Shown here: in pieces, positions 45,524 to 54,646 of the stretch
Position numbering within the stretch: position 1 is the stretch's first letter
Layout: each line of letters opens with the position of its first letter
Source of the DNA: Acidimicrobiales bacterium
Lineage (GTDB): Bacteria > Actinomycetota > Acidimicrobiia > Acidimicrobiales > Iamiaceae
Length of the DNA: 64,000 nt
Assembly: GCA_030447445.1 (NCBI GenBank)
Contig: JAUJOW010000008.1
Location: forward strand, 55,546-119,545
Direction: 5' to 3'
Program-made: the position numbers and the translations under genes
Notes under the pieces: model-generated
Database searches by the model: none
Seen by the model: only the letters and a program-made list of their open reading frames with translations
What the model was told of the DNA's origin: nothing

Positions 45524-45575
45524 GTTGAATGGTGAACGATATCTGCAACCGTTCCGATTCCGTTTCTATTTCAAC
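45524..45575. promoter_or_regulatory. AT-rich divergent promoter region with inverted repeats
   Basis: This stretch is clearly less GC-rich than its surroundings. It holds GAACG-N11-CGTTC (45534-45554), nested inside GTTGAA (45524) and TTCAAC (45570). The nested repeats lie between lon and marR and could be an autoregulatory MarR operator. Exact -35/-10 elements are not clear. Confidence 0.4.
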
Positions 45576-45596
45576 TACCCGGGCACACTCCTGCTC

Positions 45597-46061
45597 GTGG
45601 TCCGGCCACTGAGCGAGGGTGAGCAGGCGACGTGGCGGGTGGTGCTCTCGGCCAGCGTGCTGCTCGTCGAGCGGCTCGACCGGGAGCTCCAGGAGGCTCA
45701 CGGCCTGTCCCTGTCGGAGTACCAGGTGCTGGCCCACTTGGCCTCGGTCCCGGCGCGGGGGCTGCGCATGCGGGAGCTGGCCGATCGGGCCCTGATGTCC
45801 AAGAGCCGGCTGACCCACGTGGTCAACCGGCTCGAGGCCGGCGGCCTGGTCGTCCGCGAGCGGTGCGCCGCCGACCGGCGGGGCCTCAACGCCGTCCTCA
45901 CGAGGCGGGGCCAGCGGTTGGTCCAGCTCGCCGCCGCCACCCACGTACACGGCGTGCGCCGCCACCTGATAGAGGTCCTGCCCCGCCGGGATGTGGTGGT
46001 CGTGACCCGAGGCCTGAGCCACGTCGTCGACCACCTCCTCGACGACCGGGCCGGCTGCTGA
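45597..46061 (+). CDS. MarR-family transcriptional regulator
   Basis: 154 residues with the winged-helix MarR fold: LSLSEYQVLAHLASVP, recognition region LRMRELADRALMSKSRLTHVVNRLEAGGLVVRE (in blocks) and the wing DRRGLNAVLTRRG. The GTG at 45597 is chosen because the sequence upstream is AT-rich promoter-like DNA. It is followed by the methyltransferase gene after 46 bp, so it may control the accessory region. The ligand is unknown. Confidence 0.82.
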   Translation: MVRPLSEGEQATWRVVLSASVLLVERLDRELQEAHGLSLSEYQVLAHLASVPARGLRMRELADRALMSKSRLTHVVNRLEAGGLVVRERCAADRRGLNAVLTRRGQRLVQLAAATHVHGVRRHLIEVLPRRDVVVVTRGLSHVVDHLLDDRAGC

Positions 46062-46107
46062 TCCGGGCCGGTCCTCTACAGTCGTTCGCGGTTCGGGAGG
46101 TGATCAG

Positions 46108-46767
46108 GTGGATTCTGCTGACGTCAGAGCCTTCTTCGAAGCGGTCTCGGCCGACTGGGACGAGATGCGTTCGAGCTTCTACAACGAGGCGGTCATCGAC
46201 AGTCTCGCCCAGCACAGCCGAGCCGAGCGTTCGATGGCGGTGGTGGATGTGGGTACGGGCACCGGCTTCGTCGCTGCGGGGCTCGCACCGGCGGTCGGGC
46301 GAGTCCTCGGTGTCGACTCGTCCCCCGCCATGTTGTCCGTGGCCAGAGAGAACCTGGGGGCGCTCGGCGTGGACAACGCCGAACTGGTCCAAGGCGACAT
46401 CGGCCGGATCCCGTTCGCCAGCGCCACTGCCGACGCCGCCGTGGCCAACATGGTGCTCCATCACGCGCCGGAGCCGTCGAGCATGCTGGTCGAGATGGCT
46501 CGGGTGACCCGGCCCGGCGGTTGGGTTGCCATCACCGATGAGGTCGAGCACCCCTACGAGTGGATGCGCACGGAACAGGCCGACATCTGGCTGGGGTTCG
46601 CGGAGGCCGAGATCGCCGGGTTCTTCGCCGATGCCAGGCTGGTCGAGTACGGCTACGCCTCACTCGGGATGCAATGATGCATCCACTCCAAGACCTCGGT
46701 CGAGGTCGCAGAGATAGGCATCTTCGTCGCGTGGGGCAAGGTCAGCGACCCAGAAGGTAGGCCATGA
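46108..46767 (+). CDS. SAM-dependent methyltransferase, candidate selenoprotein with in-frame TGA
   Basis: Class I SAM methyltransferase; motif I is VVDVGTGTGF, with VDSSPAMLSVA and NMVLHHAPEP following. The GTG start has GGGAGG upstream. At 46675-46677 the frame meets TGA after SLGMQ, but the same frame continues with CIHSKTSVEVAEIGIFVAWGK, matching the C-terminus of this family, where a Cys-Cys pair precedes an ISIFVA-like strand. TGA thus sits where the first Cys is expected. The continued frame ends at 46767, exactly overlapping the next ATG (ATGA). A GGTC-loop hairpin follows the TGA. Selenocysteine (219 residues) is the best reading; a plain stop or a base error is possible. Confidence 0.75.
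46692..46707 (+). promoter_or_regulatory. SECIS-like hairpin downstream of the in-frame TGA
   Basis: GACCTC-GGTC-GAGGTC forms a 6-bp perfect stem with a GGUC loop, beginning 14 nt after the TGA; the loop begins 20 nt after it. The E. coli fdhF SECIS also presents a GGUC loop at a similar distance (18 nt). CTC/GAG can extend the stem below a 3x3 internal loop. Confidence 0.55.
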
Positions 46768-47472
46768 AGCTCGGCATCGTGGGCAAGGGTGGCGTGGGCA
46801 AGACGACGGTCTCGGCGTTGATCGCGGAGGCCTACGCCAGTCGAGGCGAACGAGTCGTCGCCATCGACACCGATTCGAACCCCAACCTGGGCATCTCCCT
46901 CGGCCTCGGGGCCGTCGACGCCGAGGCGGTGCCCGTCGTCCCCCGCAGCGTCGTGGCCGGTCCGGGCGCCGGGCTCGAGGGCGGCGAGCTGCTCTCCACC
47001 TACGGCAGGGAGACTCCCGCCGGGGTCAGCTTGCTGTCGGCCATGCGGGTCGACCAGGCCGGCGCCGGGTGCACCTGCGGTAGCCACGCCGCGGTGCGCG
47101 GCATGTTGCGCGACGTCCTCGACGACGAGGCCGATGTGACCATCGTCGACATGGAGGCGGGCCTCGAGCACCTCAGCCGCTCCGGCGGGACGCTGGCGTA
47201 CGCGGACGTCCTGCTGGTCGTCATGGAACCAAGTCGCAAGTCGGTGCTCACCGCCGCCCGGACCGTCGCCCTGGCCGACGAGCTGGGCATCCCTCGCTGC
47301 CTCGGCGTCGGCAACAAGGCTCGGCTTCCCGAGGACGCAGCCTTCTTCACCGAGGCGTGCGGAGACCGATCGAGCCGGCACCGGGGTGGTCGGAGCGGAG
47401 GCCGGCGCGGCGAGGGCCGCCGTGTCCGACCTGGTGGAGCGCCTGGACGGGCTCTCCCTACGAACCAGCTAG
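46764..47472 (+). CDS. CooC-type nucleotide-binding metal-insertion ATPase 1 (internal deletion)
   Basis: CooC/NifH-related P-loop ATPase; CooC drives nickel insertion into CO dehydrogenase. It has the deviant Walker A GKGGVGKTT, switch region DTDSNPNLG, the CxC metal motif in GCTCGSH and Walker B VDMEAGLEHL. The frame fails after FFTEAC near 47360 and resumes as DRAGTGVVGAEAG, ending SLRTS at 47472. Compared with its paralogues about 18 residues (about 53 nt) are missing there. ATG 46764 overlaps the methyltransferase's extended stop. Its tail overlaps cooC2 by 15 bp, convergently. Probably intact in the organism. Confidence 0.75.
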
Positions 47473-48186
47473 GAGTGGCGCCAGCCCGGTGAGGGCCCGC
47501 ACCGCCGGCGAGTCGGGCGACGCATCGAGAGGAGCGGTGTCGGCGCGGTCGGCGGCCGGGATGGCGTCGTCCTCGGGTATCACCAGCACCGTGCGTCCGG
47601 AGAGGGTGCGCTCCACCGTGTCCCGGTCGGCCTCGTCGAGGACCCGGTTGGCAACGATCACGATGGGTCCCGCCGTGTGCTCCTCGGCGAGGCGGGCGGC
47701 CCTCGACGCGACCTCGAGCGACTTCACCGTCGGGTCGGTGACCACTACGACGGCGTCGACCTTGGTCTCTCCGAGGCGGGTGAGCGTGCCGATCCCGGCC
47801 TCGAAGTCGGCGACCACGGTGGTGTCCTCAGCGATGTCGAGTCCGAGCAACTGCTCGGGGAGACCCCGCATCACGGGCAGCCGAAATCGGGGTCCTCGAT
47901 CTTGGAGACCATGGCGAGGCGGACGCCGTCCGGGGGCGTCGACGCCGAAGCGGGCCACGATGTCGTCCCACGAGCGGGCGTGCTCGACGCCGTCGCCGAC
48001 GCCGTCCCTGAGCGAGAGCAGCGCCTCGGTGGCGTCCATGCCCACGCCGAGAGACAGGCCGAGGTTGGGATTGGTGTCGCAGTCCAGCGCGACGACTGGC
48101 TGACCGGTCCGGGCGAGGGTGCGGGCGAGGACCGCGGCGGTGGTGGTCTTGCCTGCTCCACCCTTGCCCACGACGGCGATCTTCAC
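47458..48186 (-). CDS. CooC-type ATPase 2 (two compensating frameshifts)
   Basis: 242-residue paralogue with Walker A GKGGAGKTT, DCDTNPNLGLSLGVG and VADFEAGIGTL. Between about 47880 and 47936 the frame is shifted: one extra base in the C run (minus strand) near 47932-47936 and one missing base near 47880. Read in the shifted frame this segment is PDGVRLAMVSKIEDPDFGCP, then VMRGLPEQLLG. The CxC motif of CooC1 and CooC4 is reduced to a single Cys. GTG 48186 overlaps the cooC3 stop (GTGA). The last gene of the long minus-strand unit. Confidence 0.72.
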   Translation of the reverse strand: MKIAVVGKGGAGKTTTAAVLARTLARTGQPVVALDCDTNPNLGLSLGVGMDATEALLSLRDGVGDGVEHARSWDDIVARFGVDAPGRRPPRHGLQDRGPRFRLPVMRGLPEQLLGLDIAEDTTVVADFEAGIGTLTRLGETKVDAVVVVTDPTVKSLEVASRAARLAEEHTAGPIVIVANRVLDEADRDTVERTLSGRTVLVIPEDDAIPAADRADTAPLDASPDSPAVRALTGLAPLLAGS

Positions 48187-48941
48187 GGCGCCTCCTTGGT
48201 CAACGCGCCGAGGAGCGAGCCTACCGCCTCGACGGCCGGTGAGGCCGGGGACAGGTCGAGCAGTGGCACGCCGGCCCGCTCGGCCGCCGCCAGCGCCGGA
48301 TCACGGGGCACGAGCCCGACGACGCGAAGACCGCTGAACCGGGCGAGCTGTTCGGCGTCGCCAGAGTCGAGGGCCTTGTTGGCGATGGCGACGACCACCT
48401 GGCCTCCATCGTCGCCACCGGCGAGGCGGGCGAGGCCGGCGGGCTGAGAGCATCGACGACGGCGTGGCCTCGGCCACCACCACGATCACGTCAGCGAACC
48501 GGGCCCAGCCGAAGAAGGCCTGCCGGGTGCCGCCGGGGAGATCGCCGACGAGGTGCAGGTCGGTCTCGGCCAGCTCCCGCACGATGGCGCGGAACGCCTG
48601 CTGCGACGGCGCGACGGCGCGGACGTGGCCCCGCAGCTTGCCGAACTGCAGGAGACGGACACCGTCGGGTCCCTCGGGGGCGTACCGCTCGACCGCTTCC
48701 ATCGCCGTCATCCCGGCCCGCAACCGCCAGGTGCTGTCGGGATCGTCGCCGACCTTCTCGACCAGCTCCGGGGAGCGGCGCATCGGTGCTCGGCACCCCG
48801 AGCGAGAAGGCCAGCCCCTGGGAGCGGGTCGCTGTCGATGGCCACGACCGGCCGGCCGGTGGTCCGGGCCAGCAGGCGGCAGAACGTACCGGCGATGGCC
48901 GACTTGCCCGCTCCTCCCTTGCCTACGAACGCCACGCGCAC
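48183..48941 (-). CDS. CooC-type ATPase 3 (three single-base frameshifts)
   Basis: Paralogue starting VRVAFVGKGGAGKSAIAG (GTG 48941). One extra base in each of the G/C runs near 48815-48818, 48770-48773 and 48433-48440 shifts the frame three times, so net frame is kept. The corrected protein continues IDSDPLPG, VEKVGDDPDSTW, LLQFGKLRGHVRAV, DLPGGTRQAFFGWARFAD and VVAIANKALDSGDAEQ. It has no CxC motif and DLPGGT instead of the DxE-type Walker B, so it is the most divergent of the four. The stop overlaps cooC2. Confidence 0.65.
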
Positions 48942-49721
48942 GTCGACCACCCTGCCACGCACGCGTCAGGGTCCGGCGCTCCCACGGCGTCGAGCAGGTC
49001 GGCCACGGCGGCGACGACCGCCCCGTCGGCGTCGTCGTCGAGCAGGGCCGGGCCCGGCGATCGGCGTCGACCACGGCGTCCGAGAAGGGCACCTCGGCGA
49101 TGCTCGTCAGGCCGTGGCGGTCGCAGAACTCGGCGACGGCCACGCCGTCAGCCGGCGAGCGCACCTTGTTCACGACGACGACGGTGTGGGTCGAGGGCAG
49201 CTCGGCGGCGAGGTCGGCCAGGCGCCGTGTCGCCTCGAGCGAGCGGTAGTACGGCTCGGTCACGAGGACGAGCAGGTCGGCGAAGCGGGCGGTGCCACGG
49301 CTGATGTGCTCCGGCGACGCCTCGAGGTCGACCACGGCGAGCGTGTCGGGTGCCTCGCCGAGGTCGGCGAGCACGGCGCTGACGGCGGCGTGGGCGGAGC
49401 AGAGGCAGCCCTCGCCGGCGTGGGCAGGGCACCCATGACCAGCAGCCGGACCCCGTCGGGCGCCACCGTCCCGTGGGCGGCCAGGACGTCGTCGACGGCG
49501 GCGGTGAGGCTCGGTCCCGTGAGCTTGCGGGACACGGCCGCCGCCGGGATGCCCGCCAGGGCGGCGGCCGCCGACGGGACCACACCGAGCGCCGCCGCCA
49601 GGTTGGGGTTGCTGTCGGCATCGATGGCCACCACCGGCGTGCCCCGCCGGCCCGCGAGGCGAGCCAGCGTGGCGGCGATGGTGGTCTTGCCGGCGCCCTT
49701 GCCGGCGAAGGCAACCCTCAT
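48923..49721 (-). CDS. CooC-type ATPase 4 (frameshifts, shortened P-loop)
   Basis: Paralogue starting MRVAFAGKGAGKTTIAATLA; the P-loop lacks one Gly of the family's GKGGxGKT, probably another small deletion. It keeps IDADSNPNLAAALG, the CxC motif GCLCSAH and VDLEASPEHISRGT. Single missing bases near 49414 and near 49055 explain the frame changes; adding both gives about 266 residues, ending at a TAG at 48923. ATG 49721 overlaps the PadR stop (ATGA), and its 3' end overlaps the cooC3 start by 19 bp. Confidence 0.68.
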
Positions 49722-50086
49722 CGAGGCCGTCGCAGCGGTCCGAGGACGCCCTCGGCCCGGTCGACGAGCCGGCCGAGGAGGTCGACGGTCGCCCGGATCG
49801 ACTCGATCTCGGTCTCGAGGGCGTGGCGGCCGGTGGCCGTGAGGATGTAGGTCCGCCGGGGTGGTCCGGACGAGGAGTCCTCCCACCACGACTCGAACAG
49901 GCCGTGCTGCTCCATCGTCCGCAGCGTCCGGTAGATGCCCCAGGGTCGGCCACGCGGATGCCGGCCTCCCGCACCTGCTCCAACAGCTCGTACCCGTGGG
50001 TGGGGCCGGGGCCACCAGCACGAGCAGGACGGCGCGCGAAGGTACGACCGCGGCAGACCTCGCTCGCTCGGCTCGTCGACGGTCAT
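49718..50086 (-). CDS. PadR-family transcriptional regulator (three single-base deletions)
   Basis: Small winged-helix regulator. The frames, joined by adding one base at about 50028, 50007 and 49947, read MTVDEPSERG, SYLRA, VLLVLVAPAP, THGYELLEQVREAGIRVADP, GIYRTLRTMEQHGLFESWW and a dimerising C-terminal helix (TEIESIRATVDLLGRLVDRAE). This is the complete PadR layout with the HGYELL and GIYRTLRTME signatures. Corrected length is 123 residues. ATG 50086 overlaps the upstream regulator's stop, and its own stop overlaps cooC4. It may sense the metal or substrate handled by this unit. Confidence 0.72.
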   Translation of the reverse strand: MTVDEPSERGLPRSYLRAPSCSCWWPRPHPRVRAVGAGAGGRHPRGRPWGIYRTLRTMEQHGLFESWWEDSSSGPPRRTYILTATGRHALETEIESIRATVDLLGRLVDRAEGVLGPLRRPR

Positions 50087-52245: not shown

Positions 52246-52896
52246 TCACGCTCGACCCCGCTCCGCCCGTGGCGGCGGCGACGCCACCGGCCTCCGTCCG
52301 GCCAGAGCGTCCTCGAAGCAGGGCAGGCACAGCTCTCGGCCGTCGAGCCGGCGCACGCGGGTCTCCATGGTGGGTTCGTCGCAGGTGGCGCAGTTGACAG
52401 AGGTGAACACGCGGGCCGGAGGGGGAGCCTCGACGTCGACCTCCCGGACGTCGTACAGCTCCTGCAGGGGAGCGGCGAGGATGCGCTCGGACCGTTCCTG
52501 GTGGGAGGCCAGGAACCGGTCCCGCTCTTCGGGGCTGGCTGTGCCGGTGCGGACCTTGGCGAAGAGCGCCATCCACTCCGGATCCTTCGGTCCCCACCCG
52601 TCGGGACGGGTGCTGACCCGCACCGCTCGGCCGTCGGAGCGGCGTACGAACGTGTAGGCGTTCTTCCCGTGGTCCCGGTGCACCAGGTTCCCCTTGCCGA
52701 AGGTGCAACCGGTCAGGAACTGGATGGCGTCCACGCCGCACATGTCTGTCTCGACGATGGCCACCACCTCCTCGTCGCCGGCGTGGCGACCGATCCGTTC
52801 GAGGGCCACCTCGGCGGCCCGGACGCCCATGGCCAGGCCCGGGCACATGTGGCCGTGGAACGCCACCACCCGCTCCAGCTCTGCTCGATCGATCAT
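52246..52896 (-). CDS. FmdE-family protein with C-terminal zinc finger
   Basis: 216 residues. The N-terminal FmdE domain (named after formylmethanofuran dehydrogenase subunit E) has FHGHMCPGLAMGVRA and ETDMCGVDAIQFLTGCTFGKGNL, which supply the conserved His/Cys ligands. The C-terminal four-Cys finger is NCATCDEPTMETR...ELCLPCFEDAL. FmdE proteins also occur outside methanogens near metal or cofactor transport genes. ATG 52896 has AAGGAGAG upstream. It lies between the two binding-protein genes. A role in receiving or trafficking the imported metal or cofactor is inferred from context. Confidence 0.83.
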   Translation of the reverse strand: MIDRAELERVVAFHGHMCPGLAMGVRAAEVALERIGRHAGDEEVVAIVETDMCGVDAIQFLTGCTFGKGNLVHRDHGKNAYTFVRRSDGRAVRVSTRPDGWGPKDPEWMALFAKVRTGTASPEERDRFLASHQERSERILAAPLQELYDVREVDVEAPPPARVFTSVNCATCDEPTMETRVRRLDGRELCLPCFEDALAGRRPVASPPPRAERGRA

Positions 52897-52939
52897 GGTG
52901 AGCTCTCCTTCGGTCGGTGCACGCAGCTCGGACGGGTGC

Positions 52940-54646
52940 TCATTCGGTGGGGCGGATCTCGGTGCCCGAGGGCACCCCGGTGACGAAGACCTGCTTGTTG
53001 ACCACCCCGACCGGGAAGCCACCGGGGGTGAAGTACCACGAGTCGAGCACCGCCCTCCGGTACACGAGGAAGACGGTCGAGTAGTACAGGGGCAGCACAG
53101 GGACGTCCCGGGCCACGATCCGCTGCATCTCGGCCACGAGCCGCTTCCGCTCGTCCCGATCGAACGTCGAGCGCTGTCGAGCGGCGAGATCGTCGAGCTC
53201 CGGGTCGACGTAGCCGTCGGCGTGATCGAGGCCCGGCTCCACCCTCGAGGAGTAGATGGTGCGGAGGTAGTCCGGGTCGCCGTTGAGCCCCGGTGCGCTC
53301 GGGCCGGGGTAGAGGGTGATGGCCATCTCGTAGGCGCCGGTGACCTTGCTGGCGAACAGTTGGGGCCCGAGCTCGACGGCCTTCGTGTTCAGCTCGATCC
53401 CCACCGCTTCGAGGGCCCCGGTCACCAGCTCGGCCAAGGGCGCCAGGGTGTTCGGGAACAGCAGCTCGAAGCGCAGCGGCTCGCCGTTGCCGTCCTCCCG
53501 GGTGGCGTCGCGGCTCGGCCGCCGGTAGCCGGCGTCATCGAGAAGCCGCTCGGCGGCGTCCCGGTCGAAGCGATACTGCTCGACCTCGGCGTGGAAGGGG
53601 TTGGTGGGCGGCAGGAAGCCGGGGTTCCCGGGCAGTGCGTTGCCGCCGGCCAGGCGGTCGGCCAGGTCTCCGGTGTCGATGGCCCGCGCGCAGGCCCGGC
53701 GGAACCGCACGTCGGCCAGGGCTCCCCCCTTGGCCAGGTTGAAGTACAGGGGGAAGGTGAAGGCGCCCTCCTCCTCGATGACCTCGAAGCTGTCGTCGGC
53801 CAGGAACGGGGCCAACGTGGCCGGACGCACCCCCTCCACCTCGAGGGAGCCGCCGGCGTCGATCTCGTCGGCGAGGAGGGCGGTGAAGGCGTCGCCCACC
53901 TCCGCCATCTCGACCCGTTCCACGAAGGGCGGGCCGAGGAAGTAGTCGTCGGAGGCCGAGTACAGCAGCGGTTCTCCGTCCCCCTCGTAGGACTCGAGCC
54001 GGTAGGGCCCGGTTCCCACCAGCAGCTCGGTGTCCTGGGCGGCGGTGGCATCGTCGACCGACGACCAGATGTGCCGGGGCACGATCGGGAGCGCTCCGGC
54101 CACCCGCTCGGGGAAGGTGACGGCCGGTTCCTCGAGGCGGATCTCCACCGTGCGCCCGCCCATCGCTCGAACCCCGGCGACGCCGTCGGGCCGGGCCACC
54201 ACCACCGGTGAGACAAGCTGGTCGGCCGAGTACTCGAACGTGAACACCACGTCCTCGGGGGTCAACGGGCGCCCATCGTGCCAGCGGATGCCCTCCCGCA
54301 GCTCGAAGGTCCACGTCGAGCCGTCGTCCGAGCGCTCGAAGCGTCGGGCCAGCCAGGGCAACAGCCGTCCGGTGGCGTCCTTCCAGAGGAGCGTGTCGTA
54401 GAGCAGGCTCATCTGGTAGTAGCCGATGCCGGCGGCGTACGCGAACGGTGAGGGGAACCCGAAGGCCCCACCGGGCAGGCGAACCGTCGGCCGGGGTGCC
54501 GGCTCGAGGGAGCTCATGTCCACGCTCGTCGCCGGCCGGGTCGACCGGCGCTCGGAGCGGTCCCCGCCGCTGCACCCGCCCAGGACGACGGCACCGGCCA
54601 CGCCCAGGCTCGAGAGCAGGAACGCCCTCCGGTCAAAGGTCGCCAT
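52940..54646 (-). CDS. Peptide/nickel-family ABC substrate-binding lipoprotein 2
   Basis: 568-residue SBP_bac_5-family protein, complete. It starts MATFDRRAFLLSSLGVAG with a twin-Arg motif and lipobox LGGCSGG. Core motifs: LTPEDVVFTFEYS, VPRHIWSSVDDA, LLVGTGPYRLESYEG and RFRRACARAIDTGDLADRL. It shares these positions and the overall length with binding protein 1, so the pair arose by duplication. It overlaps the ATPase gene upstream by 14 bp. The ligand could be a peptide, an opine-like metallophore or a nickel chelate. Confidence 0.88.
   Translation of the reverse strand: MATFDRRAFLLSSLGVAGAVVLGGCSGGDRSERRSTRPATSVDMSSLEPAPRPTVRLPGGAFGFPSPFAYAAGIGYYQMSLLYDTLLWKDATGRLLPWLARRFERSDDGSTWTFELREGIRWHDGRPLTPEDVVFTFEYSADQLVSPVVVARPDGVAGVRAMGGRTVEIRLEEPAVTFPERVAGALPIVPRHIWSSVDDATAAQDTELLVGTGPYRLESYEGDGEPLLYSASDDYFLGPPFVERVEMAEVGDAFTALLADEIDAGGSLEVEGVRPATLAPFLADDSFEVIEEEGAFTFPLYFNLAKGGALADVRFRRACARAIDTGDLADRLAGGNALPGNPGFLPPTNPFHAEVEQYRFDRDAAERLLDDAGYRRPSRDATREDGNGEPLRFELLFPNTLAPLAELVTGALEAVGIELNTKAVELGPQLFASKVTGAYEMAITLYPGPSAPGLNGDPDYLRTIYSSRVEPGLDHADGYVDPELDDLAARQRSTFDRDERKRLVAEMQRIVARDVPVLPLYYSTVFLVYRRAVLDSWYFTPGGFPVGVVNKQVFVTGVPSGTEIRPTE

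What the first reader, a model, noticed from the sequence alone, without database searches (positions are those of the whole stretch)
46108..46767. Candidate selenoprotein: SAM methyltransferase with in-frame TGA coupled to a CooC-type ATPase
The methyltransferase frame meets TGA at 46675 but stays open and conserved afterwards (CIHSKTSVEVAEIGIFVAWGK). Three independent signs argue for read-through: the TGA aligns with the first Cys of a Cys-Cys pair remembered from this family; a hairpin with a GGUC loop lies 14-29 nt downstream, like the E. coli fdhF SECIS; and the extended frame ends in an exact ATGA overlap with the next gene, the same junction used throughout this window. If true, it would be a redox- or metal-active methyltransferase tied to a metal-insertion ATPase.
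Basis: partly seen in the sequence, partly recalled or inferred. Interest (0 to 1): 0.9.

Follow-up and report, generated by a model that had tools for sequence, protein, structure and literature searches.

The report
New selenium-containing methyltransferase family of bacteria
A bacterial methyltransferase gene that annotation software ends at a TGA codon is very likely read through that codon as selenocysteine: relatives keep a stop codon exactly there, two of them carry TAG and have a selenocysteine tRNA with the matching CUA anticodon, and the enzyme would probably act on reactive sulfur compounds.

Summary
The TGA at 46675-46677 sits inside a frame that stays open for 29 codons. The own genome encodes SelA, SelD, a tRNA-Sec(UCA) and a SelB whose frame is interrupted. 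Of 120 listed homologues (the window's own included), 118 end exactly one residue before this codon. In the 11 close loci whose DNA I read the codon is TGA (9) or TAG (2), and all 11 stay open into the same tail. The two TAG carriers (Modestobacter, Blastococcus) have a tRNA-Sec with anticodon CUA; the eight TGA carriers tested have UCA. Natural Cys relatives exist, and a GGNC-loop hairpin is kept 11-14 nt downstream in all 11. A confident AlphaFold model shows the tail as the last strand of the fold. The ATPase link does not hold: 0 of 13 other loci have that ATPase beside the gene. Instead 6 of 11 carriers have an ArsR-rhodanese regulator within 2.5 kb, several with further sulfur genes; 0 of 72 control loci do. 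Inferred function: S-methylation of a reactive sulfur (or other soft) substrate. A 2026 inventory of 119 prokaryotic selenoprotein families lists none like it.

The parts
46096..46105 (+). ribosome-binding site GGAGGTGATC
   Evidence: read in the sequence; GGAGG 7 nt before the GTG start
46108..46767 (+). Sec-containing class I SAM methyltransferase gene, 219 residues, U190, stop TGA 46765-46767
   Evidence: open frame; Pfam Methyltransf_11 3.1e-24; AlphaFold pLDDT 93.3 with Cys standing for Sec
46675..46677 (+). TGA recoded as selenocysteine (residue 190)
   Evidence: TGA or TAG in 11 of 11 loci; codon matches tRNA-Sec anticodon in the 10 genomes tested; Cys in P0017 and in CC forms
46692..46707 (+). 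putative bacterial SECIS hairpin, stem GACCTC/GAGGTC, loop GGTC
   Evidence: 66 of 66 pair cells formed, no double change; in the minimum-energy fold of 10 of 11; six consecutive third codon positions invariant in 11 of 11
46678..46764 (+). 29-codon tail: end of the strand 178-193 and the strand 200-212 of the model
   Evidence: aligned to the C-terminal strand of homologues
46764..47492 (+). P-loop ATPase gene overlapping by ATGA; frame looks shifted near 47365; not a conserved neighbour
45525..46061 (+). MarR-type regulator gene upstream; not a conserved neighbour

Best explanation
The gene at 46108-46767 very likely encodes a selenoprotein: the ribosome would read the TGA at 46675 as selenocysteine, guided by the hairpin just downstream, to give a 219-residue SAM-dependent methyltransferase. 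Shown: a stop codon kept at this place, the frame kept open after it, the hairpin kept, Sec genes in the genome, the codon matched to the tRNA-Sec anticodon in the ten carrier genomes tested. Predicted by AlphaFold: the residues after the TGA form the last strand of the sheet; in class I methyltransferases this is beta7, lying between strands 5 and 6 (recalled topology), so a product ending at the TGA would probably not fold. Inferred: Sec190, near the end of beta6, lies at the substrate side of the sheet (topology recalled; no distance measured), and its selenolate would bind or orient a soft nucleophile such as sulfide, methanethiol or a persulfide for methylation by SAM, as part of a reactive-sulfur response run by an ArsR-rhodanese regulator. 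Some outlying relatives have a Cys-Cys pair at the same place. Confidence is about 0.95 for Sec insertion and about 0.4 for the sulfur substrate.
For: SelA 1.8e-98, SelB N-terminal part right after selA, SelD 4.0e-95, tRNA-Sec 68.3 bits, anticodon UCA. 118 of 120 listed homologues end at the codon before. 9 TGA and 2 TAG among 11 loci; the TAG pair has tRNA-Sec CUA, the 8 TGA carriers tested have UCA. The TAG pair nests in the Sec clade, and so does the one close Cys form P0017. Cys relatives. Six consecutive invariant third positions over the hairpin against a longest run of 2 in 184 upstream columns. Fold: pLDDT 93.3, pTM 0.90. Neighbours: ArsR-rhodanese within 2.5 kb in 6 of 11 loci, with DsrE and a Pyr_redox_2 flavoprotein (SQR-like, my reading) in L020, rhodanese, MBL-rhodanese and TauE in L023, rhodanese, MBL and MFS in L173; 0 of 72 distant-homologue loci and 0 of 9 sel loci. 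UbiE/UbiG-type enzymes of Actinomycetota methylate H2S and MeSH (PMC12904073, abstract and sections 2.2-2.4).
Against: No compensatory double change in the hairpin; L022's minimum-energy fold differs, and z-scores are weak outside the window. The own genome's SelB frame is interrupted (404 aa open; pieces in other frames), by assembly indel or decay. G517, a TGA carrier, shows no SelA (79% complete) but has tRNA-Sec. For the truncated database proteins I saw DNA only for the loci fetched. The 14 most distant relatives aligned have a gap, not Cys, at the position. 5 of 11 loci, the window among them, have no ArsR-rhodanese gene in the DNA held; L021 has an ArsR-LMWPc (arsenate-reductase-like) gene instead. 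No substrate is shown by any search.
Confidence: 0.88

Rival explanations
1. The gene ends at the TGA and the open frame behind it is chance or a leftover; the 189-residue protein is the product.
For: Database proteins end there (118 of 120 listed); TGA is a stop codon in table 11.
Against: Tail conserved at protein level in 11 of 11 loci, Cys forms read through, the codon is TAG in the two genomes whose tRNA-Sec is CUA, and the last strand of the fold would be lost.
Confidence: 0.03
2. A selenoprotein whose Sec binds arsenic or another metalloid: an arsenite-type methyltransferase.
For: Weak ArsM-type NCBIfam matches (NF008823, 79.6 bits); ArsR-LMWPc gene in L021 and an LMWPc gene in L174; the CCxxSxCG stretch in L025, L026 and L134 looks like a soft-metal site.
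Against: 79.6 bits is far under the 263-bit cut-off and covers only residues 44-147; the third Cys is absent from the Sec forms; the most frequent neighbour type is rhodanese-linked.
Confidence: 0.25
3. A selenoprotein in which Sec is a redox switch that turns the methyltransferase on or off under oxidative or sulfur stress, the substrate being an ordinary metabolite.
For: Sec is followed by Cys in 8 of 11 loci, so a selenenylsulfide between neighbours is conceivable; rhodanese-type regulators nearby.
Against: The second position is S, T or N in 3 of 11 and G in the Cys form P0017, so a pair is not required.
Confidence: 0.25
4. Methyltransferase plus downstream ATPase form a metal-insertion pair.
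For: ATGA overlap in the window.
Against: No relative of that ATPase beside the gene in 13 other loci; the ATPase frame looks shifted.
Confidence: 0.04

Closest known systems
Arsenite methyltransferase selenoprotein (NF008823) and its AhpD, DUF2284 and UXPK-star fusions
   Same: SAM methyltransferases that carry Sec (PMC13188914 Table 1)
   Different: window protein scores 79.6, 63.6, 52.9 and 56.5 bits against cut-offs 263, 510, 575 and 460; Sec motif GMQU near the C-terminus rather than UxxG; no fused domain found
MduS, methyltransferase double selenoprotein
   Same: Sec in a methyltransferase-domain protein
   Different: MduS has two Sec and CxxU; here one Sec and no CxxU
UAG-encoded selenoproteins of Geodermatophilaceae (FDH, UGSC protein, AhpC)
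   Same: tRNA-Sec CUA with matching TAG in the gene (PMC5330540, passages)
   Different: the passages read do not name a methyltransferase; here one gene family is seen with TGA, TAG and, in a protein record, Cys
MddH / MddM1 / MddM2 sulfide and methanethiol S-methyltransferases
   Same: small UbiE/UbiG-type enzymes, MddM1 210 aa, common in Actinomycetota (PMC12904073)
   Different: that paper's main text holds no 'selenocysteine'; homology to them was not tested because I held no sequence of them

Membership tests
Bacterial selenoproteins | Sec biosynthesis and decoding genes in the genome | tested here: met
   SelA, SelD, tRNA-Sec over cut-off; SelB present after selA but under cut-off and frame-interrupted, open over 589 or more residues in 6 of 6 relatives examined
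Bacterial selenoproteins | in-frame UGA conserved, with frame conserved after it | tested here: met
   11 of 11 loci, 9 TGA and 2 TAG
Bacterial selenoproteins | Cys homologues at the Sec position | tested here: met
   P0017, L025, L026, L134, and L076 by its second Cys; 14 more distant relatives have a gap
Bacterial selenoproteins | SECIS hairpin with G in the apical loop shortly after the codon (criterion recalled) | tested here: met
   stem and GGNC loop in 11 of 11; no compensatory change, so covariation is silent; one of 11 prefers another fold
Bacterial selenoproteins | selenium in the protein | not testable with these tools
   needs 75Se or mass spectrometry
tRNA-Sec(CUA)/UAG Sec coding (for L022, L023) | tRNA-Sec with CUA and TAG at the Sec site | tested here: met
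Arsenite methyltransferase ArsM (NF008823) | score over the curated cut-off | tested here: not met
   79.6 against 263 bits
MduS | two Sec residues, CxxU motif | tested here: not met
   one in-frame TGA before the final stop and no CxxU; features from PMC13188914 Table 1
Mdd S-methyltransferases | SAM-dependent methylation of H2S or MeSH | not testable with these tools
   needs an enzyme assay
Mdd S-methyltransferases | sequence homology to MddH, MddM1 or MddM2 | not tested
   their sequences were not held
CooC-type ATPase (neighbour) | match to a specific maturation-ATPase model | tested here: inconclusive
   generic CbiA/AAA_31/ParA Pfam hits, 21 NCBIfam matches all under their cut-offs

The most novel reading that the evidence does not exclude
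A widespread soil-bacterial selenoenzyme family in which selenocysteine sits at the active site of a SAM methyltransferase that methylates reactive sulfur (sulfide, methanethiol or persulfide), the same gene being written with UGA, UAG or a Cys codon according to the host's tRNA-Sec: a selenium-dependent step of terrestrial volatile-sulfur formation.
Probability: 0.35. Interest if true: 0.85.

Novelty: new variant of a known kind. Interest (0 to 1): 0.74.

Why it matters
It adds a selenoprotein family whose listed database copies are almost all cut short (118 of 120), so its C-terminus and its Sec are invisible to annotation. It is a natural experiment: one gene family with TGA in the eight UCA hosts tested and TAG in the two CUA hosts. 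If the sulfur reading is right, it would link selenium supply to reactive-sulfur detoxification and methylated sulfur gases, testable in the named Pseudonocardia, Modestobacter and Blastococcus strains.

Tried and rejected
Own-genome SepSecS: none, as expected for a bacterium with SelA. Rfam scan of 46500-46900: only sub-threshold matches, a SECIS_3 hit at 46502-46605 (21.6 bits, gathering 63) upstream of the TGA and a snoRNA at 46669-46722, both taken as chance. Region search for more Cys forms: 12 proteins, all already in the first list, none of them the Cys form P0017. Plasmid search: 3 hits, all under 60% identity, none covering 80% of the query. PDB by sequence and by fold: generic class I methyltransferases; CrArsM (rank 39), OvsM (rank 32 and below) and the S-methyltransferases TmtA and GtmA (ranks 31 and 33 of the second look) are in the lists; no substrate can be read from that.

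Wider searches for carriers: all 148 near relatives searched have some methyltransferase match, but apart from the window's own (100%) the best is 37% identical, 1.6e-29. At E 1e-35: 6 of 396 in the phylum, including the window's and one CC form; 5 of 39 in the family of G211, including that CC form; 2 of 112 and 2 of 390 in the families of the Modestobacter and Pseudonocardia genomes, starting genomes included. So the gene is patchy.

Literature: the listings of searches (4 to 20 rows each) show no title or abstract start that describes this family; they cover open-licence PMC papers only. PMC13188914: section 7 parts 1 and 2 of 3 read, passages elsewhere. PMC12013277: a term search of the main text gave no 'methyltransferase'. 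PMC10778597: passages. The groundwater selenoprotein survey (reference 66 of PMC13188914) and the original UAG-Sec paper (reference 56 of PMC5330540; recalled as Mukai 2016) were not read.

Full report
What is in the sequence. The frame from GTG 46108 meets TGA at 46675-46677, continues for 29 codons and ends at TGA 46765-46767, overlapping the next ATG as ATGA. It is a class I SAM methyltransferase (Pfam Methyltransf_11, 3.1e-24). Among the 25 best of 50 NCBIfam matches none reaches its cut-off; the best is ArsM-type at 79.6 bits against 263.

Sec machinery. The own genome (86% complete, 37 contigs) has SelA at E 1.8e-98, SelD at 4.0e-95 and tRNA-Sec at 68.3 bits with anticodon UCA. SelB follows SelA directly, but its match (207 bits) is under the cut-off of 242, and similarity to the open SelB of the L020 genome runs through more than one frame. 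In six relatives the SelB frame is open over 589 to 976 residues (stop-to-stop lengths). The frame also looks shifted in the ATPase beside the methyltransferase, so small assembly errors are the likely cause; decay is not excluded.

The codon across relatives. Of the 120 homologues listed (1087 found; P0002 is the window's own), 118 end exactly 29 residues after the start of WLGF, one residue before the TGA codon. The two others are P0017, which reads GMQ-Cys and the whole tail, and P0092, which runs on in an unrelated tail. I read DNA for 11 close loci: the window, L020-L024, L130-L133 and L160. Nine have TGA and two have TAG, in Modestobacter sp. DSM 44400 and Blastococcus sp. CT_GayMR16. 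All 11 stay open into a common tail ending in an IxIFxA strand, and differ in length and sequence after it.

Codon and anticodon change together. Ten of the 11 carrier genomes were searched for tRNA-Sec (not G937, which holds L160), and all ten have one. The eight TGA genomes (G000, G527, G528, G531, G211, G355, G517, G346) have UCA; the two TAG genomes (G529, G530) have CUA. ARAGORN labels the CUA ones 'tRNA-Pyl' from the anticodon; they match Rfam tRNA-Sec at 66.9 and 66.4 bits, gathering score 47. CUA tRNA-Sec in Geodermatophilaceae is known, with FDH, UGSC and AhpC as its selenoproteins (PMC5330540, passages). SelA was over cut-off in 23 of 25 genomes searched; the two without are G517, 79% complete, and G534, a Cys-Cys carrier. 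SelA is also present in Cys-Cys carriers and in genomes of the same family that lack the gene, so SelA alone is no discriminator.

Cys forms and tree. In a 60-row alignment the Sec position meets the first Cys of a pair in L025 and L026, the second Cys of the pair in L076, and the Cys of P0017; L134, added later, meets its first Cys; the 14 more distant relatives have a gap there. In a tree of 38 rows the four CC forms lie outside (100/99), while the TAG pair (85/71) and P0017 lie inside the Sec clade (the bootstrap had not fully settled).

Hairpin. GACCTC-GGNC-GAGGTC (GGCCTC in L160) starts 14 nt after the codon in nine loci and 11 nt in L024 and L160. All 66 pair cells form; two pairs vary by G-U only and none on both sides, so covariation is silent. 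It is in the minimum-energy fold of 10 of 11; L022 prefers another. The z-score is -3.29 for the window and between -2.20 and 0.29 for the rest. The better sign is at the codons: six consecutive third positions (columns 18 to 33 of A1) are invariant in all 11, against a longest run of two in 184 upstream columns, where 19 are invariant. Synonymous recoding keeps any such hairpin in 0.07-0.17 of trials per tail.

Fold. AlphaFold gives pLDDT 93.3 and pTM 0.90, with Cys standing for Sec. Residue 190 is near the end of strand 178-193, and strand 200-212 follows. That the second strand is beta7, lying between strands 5 and 6, and that the beta6-beta7 turn is on the substrate side, is recalled class I topology; I had no coordinates and measured no distance.

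Neighbours. The window's ATPase and MarR genes have no relative in 13 other loci, nine Sec forms and four CC forms (flanks of about 0.7 to 6 kb). An ArsR-rhodanese regulator lies within 2.5 kb in L020, L023, L024, L172 (G517), L173 (G346) and L174 (G937): 6 of 11 carriers. It is not seen in the window (64 kb), L021, L022, L170 or L171; L021 and L172 are short records. L020 adds DsrE and a Pyr_redox_2 flavoprotein, SQR-like in my reading. L023 adds rhodanese, MBL-rhodanese, a YgaP-type rhodanese and TauE and an MFS carrier. L172 and L173 have an MBL protein and an MFS carrier, L173 also a separate rhodanese; 'persulfide-dioxygenase-like' is my reading of the MBL proteins. Control: with 60% query cover asked for, none of 72 distant-homologue loci (791 kb), 9 sel loci or 19 own-genome loci has any of these genes. 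The 72 come mostly from other phyla, so the control is not perfect.

What it does. UbiE/UbiG-type enzymes MddM1, MddM2 and MddH methylate H2S and MeSH and are reported as common in Actinomycetota (PMC12904073: abstract and sections 2.2, 2.3 and 2.4 read). ArsR-type repressors that respond to sulfide are known (PMC9774590, passages). Together with the neighbours this makes S-methylation of reactive sulfur the best guess, at about 0.4; metalloid methylation and a redox switch remain open. The Sec step itself I hold at about 0.95.

Novelty. PMC13188914 (2026; 119 families) lists methyltransferase selenoproteins of the ArsM type with three fusions, MduS and a DNA-repair methyltransferase; none is described as a single Sec in a GMQU motif. 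The searches run are named under Tried and rejected; supplements and closed papers were not read.

Noticed in passing
window 46764-50000: Several P-loop (CbiA/ParA-type) ATPase genes lie side by side on both strands, at least one with a frame that looks shifted; an unusual cluster of unknown role.
   Followed up: partly
L161:8018-9776 (G000 C6): The own genome's selB, directly after selA, matches an open SelB through more than one reading frame; assembly indel or decay.
   Followed up: partly
window 52246-53022: FmdE domain joined to a dksA/traR zinc finger, beside SBP_bac_5-type ABC transporter genes.
   Followed up: no
L024:6568-6666, L160:1483-1572: In these two forms (genomes G531 and G937, one family) the codon-to-hairpin spacing is one codon shorter (11 nt) and the residue after Sec is Thr or Asn.
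   Followed up: partly
L022:6651-6654: The extended frame of the TAG form also ends in an ATGA overlap, with a DoxX-type gene.
   Followed up: partly
L020: The record is titled Acidobacteria, while the database cluster with the same protein (P0010) is named Acidimicrobiales; the record may be misnamed.
   Followed up: no
L021:1611-2294: ArsR domain fused to a low-molecular-weight phosphatase (arsenate-reductase-like) domain near the Sec methyltransferase.
   Followed up: partly
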